From NCBI GenBank assembly GCA_903902915.1, contig CAIUWR010000065.1, forward strand, positions 1 through 64,000: a stretch of DNA of 64,000 nt, read 5' to 3'. Of this stretch, positions 60,241 through 64,000 are shown piece by piece. The translations under genes and the position numbers were made by a program. The number at the start of each line of letters is the position of its first letter. Positions within the stretch are counted from its first letter, which is position 1. Source of the stretch: an uncultured Hyphomicrobiales bacterium (GTDB lineage: Bacteria; Pseudomonadota; Alphaproteobacteria; Rhizobiales; Beijerinckiaceae). Under the pieces are notes generated by a model. That model was not told the DNA's origin, searched no databases, and was given only the letters and a program-made list of their open reading frames with translations.

Positions 60241-60567
60241 TCAAAGATTCGAGCGCCCGTTCACGAGGGAGCCATCCTCAGCCTTGATGAAGACCCGCAG
60301 CACTTTCCCGTCCCGGCGCAACAGCGTTATCTCATAAACATAGTCTTCATTCCAGCGGCAGAGTCGGCTGCGCAGCGGCTCGGCATGAGCGATAGCCGCC
60401 GCAGACCGAAGCGCGCTCGCGGGATCCGTGAACCTGTTATTCGTGACCGCCTCGCGCGCATCGCCGGGATTGAGGCAAGCGCGGTCCAGATGCGGAGCCT
60501 CGGCGCCAAGCGCCGGGCCAACAACAAGCAGGGCGACAAACGCCGGAACAAAAAGTTGAAAGGTCAT
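60241..60567 (-). CDS. small periplasmic PepSY-like protein (FeuN-like candidate)
   Basis: Signal peptide MTFQLFVPAFVALLVVGPALGA; C-terminal DYVYEITLLRRDGKVLRVFIKAEDGSLV; directly upstream of the response regulator. Confidence 0.7.
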   Translation of the reverse strand: MTFQLFVPAFVALLVVGPALGAEAPHLDRACLNPGDAREAVTNNRFTDPASALRSAAAIAHAEPLRSRLCRWNEDYVYEITLLRRDGKVLRVFIKAEDGSLVNGRSNL

Positions 60568-60902
60568 GGGGAAGACTGTCGCTCCCCGAAAATGAATGGC
60601 GCATGAACGCCAGGACCAAAGGCGGCCTCCTGCGCCCGCACATGAGCGGCGAGCGCCCCGTGCCGCCCCTTGCATTGCGCCAGAGCCATCCGGTCCAGCC
60701 CCCACAAACGTGCGACATCCCGGGCGGAAAGACCCGCCTGCGGAAGCTGGCGGACCGAATCACACGGCCGTGTCAGGCTGTCAGGGGCGCGCGCCGGCGG
60801 AGCCGACGTCACGACCAATGGCGTCGAGGGCGCGCACGACGCCAACGCCAAGGCAAAGCCCGCCACTGGCGGAATCGCCAGCCGACTGCGCCAACAATGC
60901 AT
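60564..60902 (-). CDS. Rz1-like outer-membrane spanin lipoprotein, overlapping the i-spanin gene
   Basis: MHCWRSRLAIPPVAGFALALASC lipobox, then SAPPARAPDSLTRPCDSVRQLPQAGLSARDVARLWGLDRMALAQCKGRHGALAAH. Confidence 0.7.
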   Translation of the reverse strand: MHCWRSRLAIPPVAGFALALASCAPSTPLVVTSAPPARAPDSLTRPCDSVRQLPQAGLSARDVARLWGLDRMALAQCKGRHGALAAHVRAQEAAFGPGVHAPFIFGERQSSP

Positions 60903-61155
60903 CATAGCTCTCCTGAAGCTGATCACGCGCGCGCTCCAGATCGGCGACCTGCGCGTTGGTGACGGCGAGCGCGGCTTCCGCAGCCGCACGCTGACGGGCG
61001 GATTCAGCATCCACCGCGCGAAGAACATCCGCCCGCCCGGCGGCGGACCCTTGCGCATAGGCGCGGCTGACCGCGTGGGACAACCACGCAGCGCCGCCCA
61101 TGAAGCTGAGGAGGAGGACGGCCAAAGCCGCCCCCCAGATTTGCAGCCGCCCCAT
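60781..61155 (-). CDS. Rz-like inner-membrane spanin
   Basis: N-terminal TM, Ala/Arg/Glu coiled coil AESARQRAAAEAALAVTNAQVADLERARDQLQESYDALLAQ; out-of-frame overlap with the lipoprotein gene. Confidence 0.65.
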   Translation of the reverse strand: MGRLQIWGAALAVLLLSFMGGAAWLSHAVSRAYAQGSAAGRADVLRAVDAESARQRAAAEAALAVTNAQVADLERARDQLQESYDALLAQSAGDSASGGLCLGVGVVRALDAIGRDVGSAGARP

Positions 61156-61156
61156 C

Positions 61157-61369
61157 TCAGGCGATCGGCTGGGTGGCGCGCAGCCGCCCAACGATGGCGT
61201 TCAAACCACCCACAAGAGCGGTCAGCGCGGCTCCAAAGCCAGCCATGTCGGACGCCTTCCACGCCAGCCAGGCGCCGGTGGCGGAAGACCCCACCACTGC
61301 GATTGCGGACCAGATGGTCTGGGAGGCCCAGAAAGGCTTCGTATCGGAAACAGTCGTCGCATCAGTCAT
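61157..61369 (-). CDS. small holin-like / phage-type membrane protein
   Basis: 70 aa, WASQTIWSAIAVVGSSATGAWLAWKASDMAGFGAALTALVGGLNAIVGRLRAT; sits between endolysin and spanins. Confidence 0.6.
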   Translation of the reverse strand: MTDATTVSDTKPFWASQTIWSAIAVVGSSATGAWLAWKASDMAGFGAALTALVGGLNAIVGRLRATQPIA

Positions 61370-61370
61370 A

Positions 61371-61952
61371 TCAACACTCCTTGGTTTGCGCCGCAGCGCG
61401 GGAAAGCTCTTGCAAGGATGCGGGCTCCGGCTTGGGAGCGCTGACGCACATGGCCAGCGCAGCGCGCTCCAGCGTCTCCATCCGCGCAGTCCAGCCGCGA
61501 CGGAACACCAGCCAGGTGCTCAACCGCTTGAGAAAATTCATGCGCAATGTGCAAAGATCGCGCACGAGGGTCGCCGGATCGGTCGCTTGCGCAGCCCGCA
61601 GGCAGCGACGGGACATAAGGCCGTCCTGCTGGAAACCCAGCGCGTTCTGCAATGTGCGCACCGCCGCCTTTGGACCCGAATTCACGGCATGGTCGAACAC
61701 CACCGCATCCACGCCAGCGGGCAAATCATCCGCCCGCACGGCGGACCAATAAATGGTGCGGTAAATCTCGGACGCCTCAGCCCGCGTCAACGCGCGCACG
61801 TCGGCCTTTGACACGGCATGTCCGCGCACGCCAGCGAGCGTCGCGCGCGTGATGCCCATATTGGTCGCCCCTCCAGGATCGGCCGCTTCATCAACGAACC
61901 CGCCCTCGGCGCGCAAAGTCAGCGTAAGGCAATCGTCGAAATTCGAACGCAT
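61371..61952 (-). CDS. GH108 N-acetylmuramidase (endolysin-like)
   Basis: LRAEGGFVDEAADPGGATNMGITRATLAGVRG catalytic EGG/DPGGxTNxGIT motif; FDHAVNSGPKAAVRTLQ. Confidence 0.9.
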   Translation of the reverse strand: MRSNFDDCLTLTLRAEGGFVDEAADPGGATNMGITRATLAGVRGHAVSKADVRALTRAEASEIYRTIYWSAVRADDLPAGVDAVVFDHAVNSGPKAAVRTLQNALGFQQDGLMSRRCLRAAQATDPATLVRDLCTLRMNFLKRLSTWLVFRRGWTARMETLERAALAMCVSAPKPEPASLQELSRAAAQTKEC

Positions 61953-62013
61953 GACAACACCCCTTATGATTGGAAAAACCGTAAAACCCAACGCGCTCTT
62001 CGCGCTCAAAAGA

Positions 62014-63156
62014 TCAGGCGCCTCGCACCATGACGCCCTGAAAGTAAGAACCGCTCTGGCTAGCGTTGAGCGTGCTGACGACGTCGCTGTAAATGTAGAC
62101 CTCCAGATAGTCCGTCGAGCCATTCAAATAAACGAGAGCGGACACATGCGATTGCAGATTGGAGCCGCCCGACAGCACAGCGTCATTCCCGGACTTATAA
62201 GTTACGCCATTCTTGTAGAGCACGACGAACCATTCTCCAGACCCTGTTCCGGTCCGCCTCAAACTGGAACTCACCTGGTAATAACCAGCAACCGTGGGCT
62301 TGAAGCGATAGTTGGTCGTTGCATCAAAGCAATTCGCGGTGTCGAACTCCTTCGATTTGAACTGCGCCTTTACAAAAATGCCCGCGGAAAGCGTCTGCTG
62401 GGCTGACACCCAGACTGAAAAAGCAGGCCCATTGACCGCCTGCTTTCCATTCACCGAAATGTCTCCGGCCACATCAAGCTTCGTTGCAGGCGCTGCGGCT
62501 CCAACGCCAACATTCCCGGTGGCGGGATCGACATTCAACGCGACTGACCACGACGCGCCATCCGCCGATACTTTCACCCTGTAAACATCATCGCCCATGA
62601 GGCCCGTTTCCGCACGCCCCGACCAATTCGACTGGTAGAGCTGCGAAACGGTCATGCCGCTTCCTTGTTTGTTGAGCTTGAAGCGCAGATCGCCGGTGCC
62701 TCCCTCAGACACATTTTGCGAAGCAAAAAGCACATTGTTGAGCTTGGCGGACAGTGGATTTCCGGAATCGGAAGCAGTGCCGATACCCAACTTCGCAAAC
62801 TGATCGAGAGGCGACCTGCCAGACGCAATTTCTCGCCACGCGGAACCATCATAAACCTGCAAGGACAGGGTTGCGGCTATGAAAGTCCGCCAACCTGCAA
62901 CCGGCGCAAGAAATAGCCAGGCGCCATCCTGCAGACAGGCGATCTGATCAGCCTGACCCAGAAAAACACCTGTGGGGGTGCGCGACACAAGATAGCGCGT
63001 ACCCTCGACGCAGGAAGCGGCAGGCGCGTCGGCGAGGGAGGCGACGCTGAGATGCGTCAAGGCGTCGAGCCGCACAAGAGCATCATTATGCGTCACATGC
63101 TTTTGCGCTTGCGCCGCATCCATCAATGGCAAGGAAAGTCTGAGCGTATCTGTCAT
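62014..63156 (-). CDS. DUF2793 protein with C-terminal C1q/TNF-like domain (tail-fibre/receptor-binding candidate)
   Basis: LPLMDAAQAQKHVTHNDALVRLDALTHLSVAS...GAWLFLAPVAGW; C-terminal ATTNYRFKPTVAGYYQVSSSLRRTG...VYIYSDVVSTLNASQSGSYFQGVMV. Confidence 0.88.
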   Translation of the reverse strand: MTDTLRLSLPLMDAAQAQKHVTHNDALVRLDALTHLSVASLADAPAASCVEGTRYLVSRTPTGVFLGQADQIACLQDGAWLFLAPVAGWRTFIAATLSLQVYDGSAWREIASGRSPLDQFAKLGIGTASDSGNPLSAKLNNVLFASQNVSEGGTGDLRFKLNKQGSGMTVSQLYQSNWSGRAETGLMGDDVYRVKVSADGASWSVALNVDPATGNVGVGAAAPATKLDVAGDISVNGKQAVNGPAFSVWVSAQQTLSAGIFVKAQFKSKEFDTANCFDATTNYRFKPTVAGYYQVSSSLRRTGTGSGEWFVVLYKNGVTYKSGNDAVLSGGSNLQSHVSALVYLNGSTDYLEVYIYSDVVSTLNASQSGSYFQGVMVRGA

Positions 63157-63178
63157 GTTTCAAGACCTCTGTGAAAAT

Positions 63179-64000
63179 TCAGACCAGCACGCGCGTCGTG
63201 AAGGGAAAGCCTCGCCCCACCGCCGCGCTCAATTGATACGCCTGAAGATCAAAGGCGCTTTGCGCCGCTCCAAAATCGGCGATTTCCTGATCGCTCGAAT
63301 ATGAAATGCTTGCGTTGGTCGAAGACAAGGTTCGCACCACGGCGCCATTGCGCAAGATATCGAGATCATAGGCCTCAATATCCTCGCCTAGCGGTATTTC
63401 GACCAACTGCCAACCATCTGCGTCGCGCCGCCCGCGCCGCAGCAGCGAGAAGGTCACGCCGCCTGCTGTGCGCGCCGCAACCACCTGCGCCGGAGCGTAG
63501 GGCATCAAGGCCTTCGAACCAGCGACCGAGTCGAACGCCACGCAGGCTGCGTCCGCATAGTCGCGATTCGCAGGGCCCGCGCGCCAGGATATTTCTACCC
63601 CCAATTGCGCGAGCCCCGAGACCAGCGGCGTCACGGCGTCATCCAGAAGAACAAATGCCGCGCCAGCAGCAAGCGCCCGCTTCGCCAATTGCTCCTCCCC
63701 ACCAAGGCCACGCAACAGCGATGAAAGCCTATAGACTCCAGCCTGCACCAGTTCTGCATTTGCAAAACCGAAAATCTCCCACGCTCCATCGGAGCCCTGC
63801 AGCGCCGCCACATTGGCGCCAGCCAGCATCTGCAGCTCCGTCACCGAAGACAGGGCGCCGCCGCGCACGCGCACCTGCAAGCTCGCGCCACGATCTATCC
63901 GCCCCACAGGCCCCGGCGAAAACGCCTCCAACGTCTCGCCAATGATCGCACACCGCGTCACCGTGCGATCAAAATTGAAACTTCCGCCAACGCCACGCCA
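63179..64000 (-). CDS. C-terminal part of GTA/phage tail tip (host-specificity-like) protein, truncated by the window edge
   Basis: WRGVGGSFNFDRTVTRCAIIGETLEAFSPGPVGRIDRG; YRLSSLLRGLGGEEQLAKRALAAGAAFVLLD; the frame stays open to 64000. Confidence 0.8.
   Translation of the reverse strand, partial: WRGVGGSFNFDRTVTRCAIIGETLEAFSPGPVGRIDRGASLQVRVRGGALSSVTELQMLAGANVAALQGSDGAWEIFGFANAELVQAGVYRLSSLLRGLGGEEQLAKRALAAGAAFVLLDDAVTPLVSGLAQLGVEISWRAGPANRDYADAACVAFDSVAGSKALMPYAPAQVVAARTAGGVTFSLLRRGRRDADGWQLVEIPLGEDIEAYDLDILRNGAVVRTLSSTNASISYSSDQEIADFGAAQSAFDLQAYQLSAAVGRGFPFTTRVLV

What the first reader, a model, noticed from the sequence alone, without database searches (positions are those of the whole stretch)
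60564..64000. Complete phage-type lysis cassette appended to a gene-transfer-agent/tail gene cluster
Minus-strand order: tail tip protein, DUF2793 protein, GH108 muramidase, small holin-like protein, Rz-like i-spanin, Rz1-like o-spanin, with intergenic gaps of about 1 nt between the last genes. The tail tip and DUF2793 sequences resemble those at the 3' end of RcGTA-type clusters. In the reference Rhodobacter capsulatus GTA, endolysin and holin lie at a separate locus, so a contiguous lysis set would be a different genetic design. Whether this is a GTA, a domesticated tail particle or a prophage remnant cannot be decided because the window ends in the tail gene.
Basis: partly seen in the sequence, partly recalled or inferred. 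Interest (0 to 1): 0.8.

Follow-up and report, generated by a model that had tools for sequence, protein, structure and literature searches.

The report
Lysis genes on a headless GTA
A Hyphomicrobiales (Rhizobiales) bacterium carries a complete phage-type lysis gene set at the end of an ancient gene-transfer-agent (GTA) cluster; this arrangement proves widespread across the order, but in this genome the cluster has lost its capsid and DNA-packaging genes and is almost certainly dead.

Summary
On the minus strand, 60564-64000 encodes the end of the GTA 'megatron' g15, a DUF2793 fibre, a GH108 muramidase, a small 2-TM holin-like protein, an Rz-like i-spanin and an overlapping Rz1-like lipoprotein. 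Upstream lies an RcGTA-type cluster (g6-g14, TerS-like gene, a TerL piece), with no integrase or phage repressor recognised nearby. It is broken: TerL keeps only its nuclease end, portal and capsid are gone from the whole genome, g6 lacks its start, and g10 and the tape measure are truncated at an out-of-frame deletion. A 96%-identical relative has an intact g6, so the loss is recent. This is a GTA ruin, not a prophage, and hardly a tail particle. The contiguous lysis set is not special to this genome: the slot g15-[fibre]-[endolysin]-[holin]-PepSY-RR-HK recurs across Hyphomicrobiales with GH108, Amidase_2 or M15-type endolysins. That differs from R. capsulatus (unlinked lysis genes) and C. 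crescentus (LypABC). By-products: endolysin and holin usually share one ORF with a conserved internal start; two lineages keep GTA clusters lacking tail tube and tape measure, with intact, constrained genes.

The parts
63179..64000 (-). 3' part of GTA g15 'megatron' baseplate protein (the gene continues to contig position 67060, 1293 aa, intact)
   Evidence: NCBIfam NF048004 GTA_megatron, Pfam PF23666; 61% identical over its length to the G096 homologue
62014..63156 (-). DUF2793 tail-fibre-like protein, 380 aa
   Evidence: Pfam PF10983 E 1.9e-24; PHROG tail-fibre families
61371..61952 (-). GH108 muramidase (endolysin), 193 aa, EGG motif intact
   Evidence: Pfam PF05838 E 3e-28; PHROG 315 endolysin E 4e-46; partial match to NCBIfam holin-associated N-acetylmuramidase
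61157..61369 (-). small 2-TM holin-like protein, 70 aa; SD AAGGAG upstream of ATG; 1-nt gap after the endolysin
   Evidence: topology and SD; 77% identical homologue in the same position in G067; no family model matches
60781..61155 (-). Rz-like i-spanin, 124 aa: N-terminal TM then a long helical-looking, Ala-rich body
   Evidence: weak PHROG Rz matches; 40 homologue clusters at 58-98% identity
60564..60905 (-). Rz1-like o-spanin lipoprotein, overlapping Rz by 125 nt in another frame
   Evidence: Pfam LysC PF23793 E 2.2e-6; lipobox LASC; SD AGGAG; homologue in L074
60241..60567 (-). PepSY-like small secreted protein, 4-nt overlap with Rz1; conserved downstream border of the lysis slot
   Evidence: PepSY at E 0.011 only, below cut-off; found in the same place in most relatives
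59539..60216 (-). OmpR-type response regulator, conserved downstream neighbour
   Evidence: Pfam Response_reg and Trans_reg_C; syntenic in relatives
58148..59539 (-). sensor histidine kinase, conserved downstream neighbour
   Evidence: Pfam HATPase_c; syntenic in relatives

Best explanation
This is the 3' end of an old, vertically inherited RcGTA-type gene transfer agent cluster whose Hyphomicrobiales version carries its tail fibre and lysis genes in the same locus, just before a PepSY-RR-HK operon. In intact relatives the cassette most likely works as in phages: the holin opens the inner membrane, the GH108 muramidase cuts the peptidoglycan, and Rz/Rz1 (where present) fuse the membranes to release particles. 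In this genome the cluster has recently lost TerL's ATPase part, portal, protease, capsid, the start of g6, the end of g10 and the first half of the tape measure, so no DNA-carrying particle can be made. The lysis genes are open and may still work, but now have no particle to release. Shown: gene content, order, deletions, absence of capsid and portal, order-wide synteny. Inferred: lytic function, co-transcription, loss of particle production.
For: Families of each gene. Window = contig C65:1-64000 of 100,100 bp. Beyond 64000: g14-g6 in RcGTA order. TerL only codons about 315-450 in the whole genome. No Phage_capsid or Phage_portal match genome-wide, while the same models score 294 and 280 bits on genus-mate G067's proteins. 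Relatives have a median 4.3 kb between TerL codon 450 and g6, and 0.66 kb between g10 codon 81 and tape-measure codon 106; here both are about zero and the joins are out of frame. A full-length g6 96% identical over the shared part exists elsewhere (P0001). Synteny across the order. 43 of 119 g15 loci in the family have GH108 within 7 kb downstream. A DUF6456 (GafA-type) regulator is intact 12 kb away (PMC9638019, PMC9765227).
Against: g7-g9, g12-g15, the fibre and all lysis genes are still open, which a fully abandoned locus would lose in time; recency explains it, but retention for another use is not excluded. The small protein has no holin family match. Holin, spanin and expression are untested. 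The assembly has 102 contigs; read coverage over the joins could not be checked.
Confidence: 0.85

Rival explanations
1. A domesticated tail-like particle (tailocin) with its own lysis genes, kept after the head was discarded.
For: Tail tube, g7-g8, g12-g15, fibre and lysis genes are open, head genes are gone.
Against: Tape measure is reduced to its last 94 residues, g10 is cut at codon 81 and g6 has lost its first third, all at out-of-frame joins; a TerL nuclease remnant is left as debris; near relatives keep g6 whole. No siphovirus-like tail is known to assemble without a complete tape measure (established phage biology).
Confidence: 0.06
2. An ordinary prophage remnant.
For: Structural plus lysis genes in phage order with gene loss, as in decaying prophages.
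Against: Same locus beside PepSY-RR-HK in most of the order, i.e. old vertical inheritance; no integrase, repressor or tRNA recognised among the flanking genes examined; g15 matches the GTA megatron model; a DUF6456 GafA-type gene is present.
Confidence: 0.03
3. The missing genes are an assembly or binning artefact and the strain has an intact GTA with the contiguous lysis set.
For: Draft genome of 102 contigs; a near relative with full-length g6 exists.
Against: Two internal joins (0.66 and about 4.3 kb) plus the TerS/TerL join lie inside one continuous contig without repeats; capsid and portal are absent from all 102 contigs at 99.9% estimated completeness.
Confidence: 0.06

Closest known systems
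RcGTA of Rhodobacter capsulatus (Rhodogtaviriformidae)
   Same: Same head-tail gene order g6-g15 and megatron; GH108-type endolysin annotated alike (NCBIfam holin-associated N-acetylmuramidase, partial match); GafA-type regulator at another place.
   Different: In R. capsulatus tail fibre (rcc00171) and endolysin/holin (rcc00555/556) are at unlinked loci (PMC8601537); here fibre and lysis genes follow g15 directly, with spanins, and the head genes are deleted.
CcGTA of Caulobacter crescentus
   Same: RcGTA-type cluster; GafYZ/GafA-type control.
   Different: No holin-endolysin in the cluster or the genome; release uses LypABC (PMC13236601; PMC9632790).
Phage lambda-type lysis cassette (S-R-Rz-Rz1)
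   Same: Holin-like, endolysin, i-spanin and embedded o-spanin lipoprotein in one compact set.
   Different: Endolysin precedes holin; endolysin is GH108; Rz1 overlaps Rz's end and runs past it; no antiholin dual start seen.
GTA clusters of Methylocystis, Microvirga, Chelatococcus and other Hyphomicrobiales
   Same: Same slot between g15 and PepSY-RR-HK holding fibre and lysis genes.
   Different: Heads intact in most; endolysin type varies (GH108, Amidase_2, M15-type); spanins only sometimes; endolysin and holin often one ORF.

Membership tests
RcGTA-type GTA (Rhodogtaviriformidae) | Conserved head-tail cluster order with megatron g15 | tested here: met
   g6-g15 in order, NCBIfam GTA_megatron and GTA baseplate hub models match
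RcGTA-type GTA (Rhodogtaviriformidae) | Complete particle gene set (TerL, portal, protease, capsid, tape measure) | tested here: not met
   portal and capsid absent genome-wide, TerL and tape measure truncated; a remnant of a member, not a working GTA
RcGTA-type GTA (Rhodogtaviriformidae) | No integrase or phage repressor; vertical inheritance | tested here: met
   none recognised among the flanking ORFs examined by Pfam; no tRNA in 55-75 kb; order-wide synteny
RcGTA-type GTA (Rhodogtaviriformidae) | GafA/GafZ-type regulator in the genome | tested here: met
   DUF6456 protein at contig 83480-84379, E 1e-44; DUF6456 is how gafA is annotated (PMC9638019, PMC9765227)
RcGTA-type GTA (Rhodogtaviriformidae) | Packages random host DNA and transfers it | not testable with these tools
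lambda-type lysis cassette | Endolysin with catalytic domain intact | tested here: met
   GH108 full length, EGG motif present
lambda-type lysis cassette | Holin | tested here: inconclusive
   two hydrophobic segments, right place, strong SD, conserved in relatives; no holin model matches
lambda-type lysis cassette | i-spanin/o-spanin pair with embedded lipoprotein gene | tested here: met
   Rz-like with N-terminal TM; Rz1-like LysC match with lipobox, out-of-frame overlap; pair conserved in L074
tailocin | Complete tail incl. tape measure without head genes | tested here: not met
   tape measure reduced to 94 aa, g10 and g6 truncated

The most novel reading that the evidence does not exclude
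Related GTA clusters keep working without a tail tube. Two separate lineages (genus-mates G067/G028; MAGs L107/L131) have TerS, TerL, portal, protease, capsid, g6, g12-g15 intact but no tail-tube gene anywhere in the genome and no tape measure in the cluster, with dN well below dS since the shared loss. They would make tail-less or short-tailed GTAs. Together with the single-ORF endolysin-holin with a conserved internal start, this would show that Hyphomicrobiales have reworked GTA architecture and release.
Probability: 0.35. Interest if true: 0.75.

Novelty: new variant of a known kind. Interest (0 to 1): 0.5.

Why it matters
How alphaproteobacterial GTAs leave the cell is known in two species only, and the two differ: unlinked holin-endolysin in R. 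capsulatus, LypABC in C. crescentus. The papers read here on the wider group do not describe lysis genes in the cluster; one even proposes XseA for this role (PMC9765227). A conserved, exchangeable lysis slot at the 3' end of Hyphomicrobiales GTA clusters gives concrete genes to delete and test in culturable strains (Methylocystis rosea, Microvirga, Chelatococcus, Bosea as the no-slot contrast). The broken cluster here is a snapshot of how a GTA is lost: head and packaging first, lysis genes last.

Tried and rejected
Viral-contig scans with the g15 end found no relative and with GH108 only one distant one; DUF2793 found six partial matches: no close viral source. Family-wide search with Pfam LysC found no o-spanin above cut-off, not even the known one here, so that model is too weak to map spanins in genomes. 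dN/dS of this genome against its nearest fetched relatives is saturated at synonymous sites and says nothing about selection since the deletions. An open frame alone is no evidence for Rz1. Reading the whole thing as a tailocin was rejected because of the truncated tape measure. The search for a near-identical full TerL gave only up to 87% matches to the remnant among the 120 listed, so only g6 shows the intact close relative.

Full report
WHAT WAS CHECKED. The window is contig C65:1-64000 of a 3.68-Mb draft genome in 102 contigs; C65 is 100,100 bp long, so coordinates above 64000 below are contig positions in the same numbering. GH108 (61952-61371), the 70-aa 2-TM protein (61369-61157) and Rz (61155-60781) follow each other with 1-nt gaps. 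Rz1 (60905-60564) begins inside Rz in another frame, has its own SD and a lipobox, and ends in a 4-nt overlap with a PepSY-like gene, followed by a response regulator and a histidine kinase.

WHAT LIES BEYOND 64000. g15 runs to 67060 (1293 aa). Then come g14 (67162-67599), g13 (67596-68471), g12 (68480-69121), a 94-aa end of the tape measure (69158-69442), the first 81 codons of g10, g9 tail tube (69686-), g8, g7, g6 without its first third, a TerL nuclease-domain piece (71219-71630) and a TerS-like gene up to 72222, preceded by a strong terminator-like hairpin. TerL matches nowhere else in the genome. Capsid and portal models find nothing, though both score about 280-294 bits on the proteins of genus-mate G067. 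In relatives about 4.3 kb separate the two ends that are joined at 71218, and about 0.66 kb those joined at 69443. Both joins are out of frame. A protein 96% identical to the rest of g6, but with a normal start, exists in other assemblies (P0001, 4 members), so the break is recent.

HOW WIDESPREAD THE ARRANGEMENT IS. In 119 genomes of the family, 97 have g15; 43 of 119 g15 loci have a GH108 gene within 7 kb downstream on the same strand. In named genomes across Hyphomicrobiales the order g15-[DUF2793]-[endolysin]-[holin]-PepSY-RR-HK recurs. The endolysin is GH108 in Microvirga, Chelatococcus, Hyphomicrobium, Ancylobacter and Lutibaculum; Amidase_2 in Methylocystis rosea, with small TM, Rz-like and Rz1-like genes behind it; M15-type in Umea2p1_bin-1081 and a Methylocystis MAG. 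Bosea has a slot of only about 0.45 kb without lysis genes. So the position is conserved while the enzymes are exchanged. The g15 sample is the best 80 hits of one capped scan, not a census.

ONE ORF FOR ENDOLYSIN AND HOLIN. Of 38 slots with GH108, 31 have a TM region behind the GH108 domain in the same ORF; in seven, including this genome, GH108 ends earlier, and in six or seven of these a separate holin-like ORF follows, five times exactly 1 nt after the stop. In the fused ORFs the holin part begins at an internal ATG with a better SD than other internal ATGs (Mann-Whitney p 1.8e-4; related sequences, so indicative only). A free holin made in all, and a fusion in most, is the simplest reading.

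TUBE-LESS CLUSTERS. G067 and G028 join g6 directly to g12; L107 and L131 have g6-g8 then g12. None has a tail-tube gene anywhere in its genome, while this genome and G096 do. The remaining genes are open, and between L107 and L131 dN/dS is low (TerL 0.030/0.58, capsid 0.061/0.59, g15 0.087/1.0). On a g12-g15 tree the two pairs fall apart, each fully supported, so the loss happened at least twice, and the genes have stayed constrained afterwards.

LITERATURE. R. capsulatus lysis genes are unlinked and need GafA and CtrA (PMC8601537, PMC6363796, PMC9638019). C. crescentus has no holin-endolysin and uses LypABC (PMC13236601, PMC9632790). Incomplete RcGTA-like clusters are noted as abundant (PMC9765227). 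In the open papers searched I found no report of a contiguous lysis slot in Hyphomicrobiales GTAs; subscription papers were not covered.

VERDICT. Observation confirmed; interpretation partly supported; a broken member of a known kind carrying a lysis arrangement that is a variant of the known kind and shared across an order.

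Noticed in passing
L067:16170-16958; also L070-L073, L076, L077, L079-L083, L090-L093, L111, L152: GH108 endolysin and the holin-like 2-TM segment form one ORF with a conserved internal ATG and SD; in this genome and some Microvirga they are separate with a 1-nt gap.
   Followed up: partly
L067:2100-14240, L068, L107, L131: GTA clusters with head and baseplate genes but no tail tube or tape measure, in two separate lineages, under purifying selection.
   Followed up: partly
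L067:7140-7907, L066:3079-3831 and most family loci: A trypsin-like protease gene sits antisense between capsid and g6 in most relatives (Pfam Trypsin E 1e-20); role in GTAs unknown.
   Followed up: no
contig C65:83480-84379 (L003:8480-9379): Intact DUF6456 (GafA-type GTA regulator) gene next to a MucR-type regulator, only 12 kb from the broken cluster.
   Followed up: partly
58148-60567: PepSY-like protein, RR and HK downstream of the lysis slot resemble, from memory, the feuN-feuP-feuQ operon of Sinorhizobium; the GTA has kept this neighbour across the order. Identity with feuNPQ was not tested.
   Followed up: partly
contig C65:72313-73046: Two small ORFs of lower GC3 without any Pfam match, just upstream of TerS and a strong terminator-like hairpin.
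   Followed up: no
L087:12773-15232: In Umea2p1_bin-1081 the DUF2793 fibre is an 819-aa protein with a collagen-like stretch and what looks like an SGNH-hydrolase end (not tested).
   Followed up: no
L071:9006-9815: g15 of G044 carries a stop or frame break after about 270 codons, so GTA decay is not confined to this genome.
   Followed up: no
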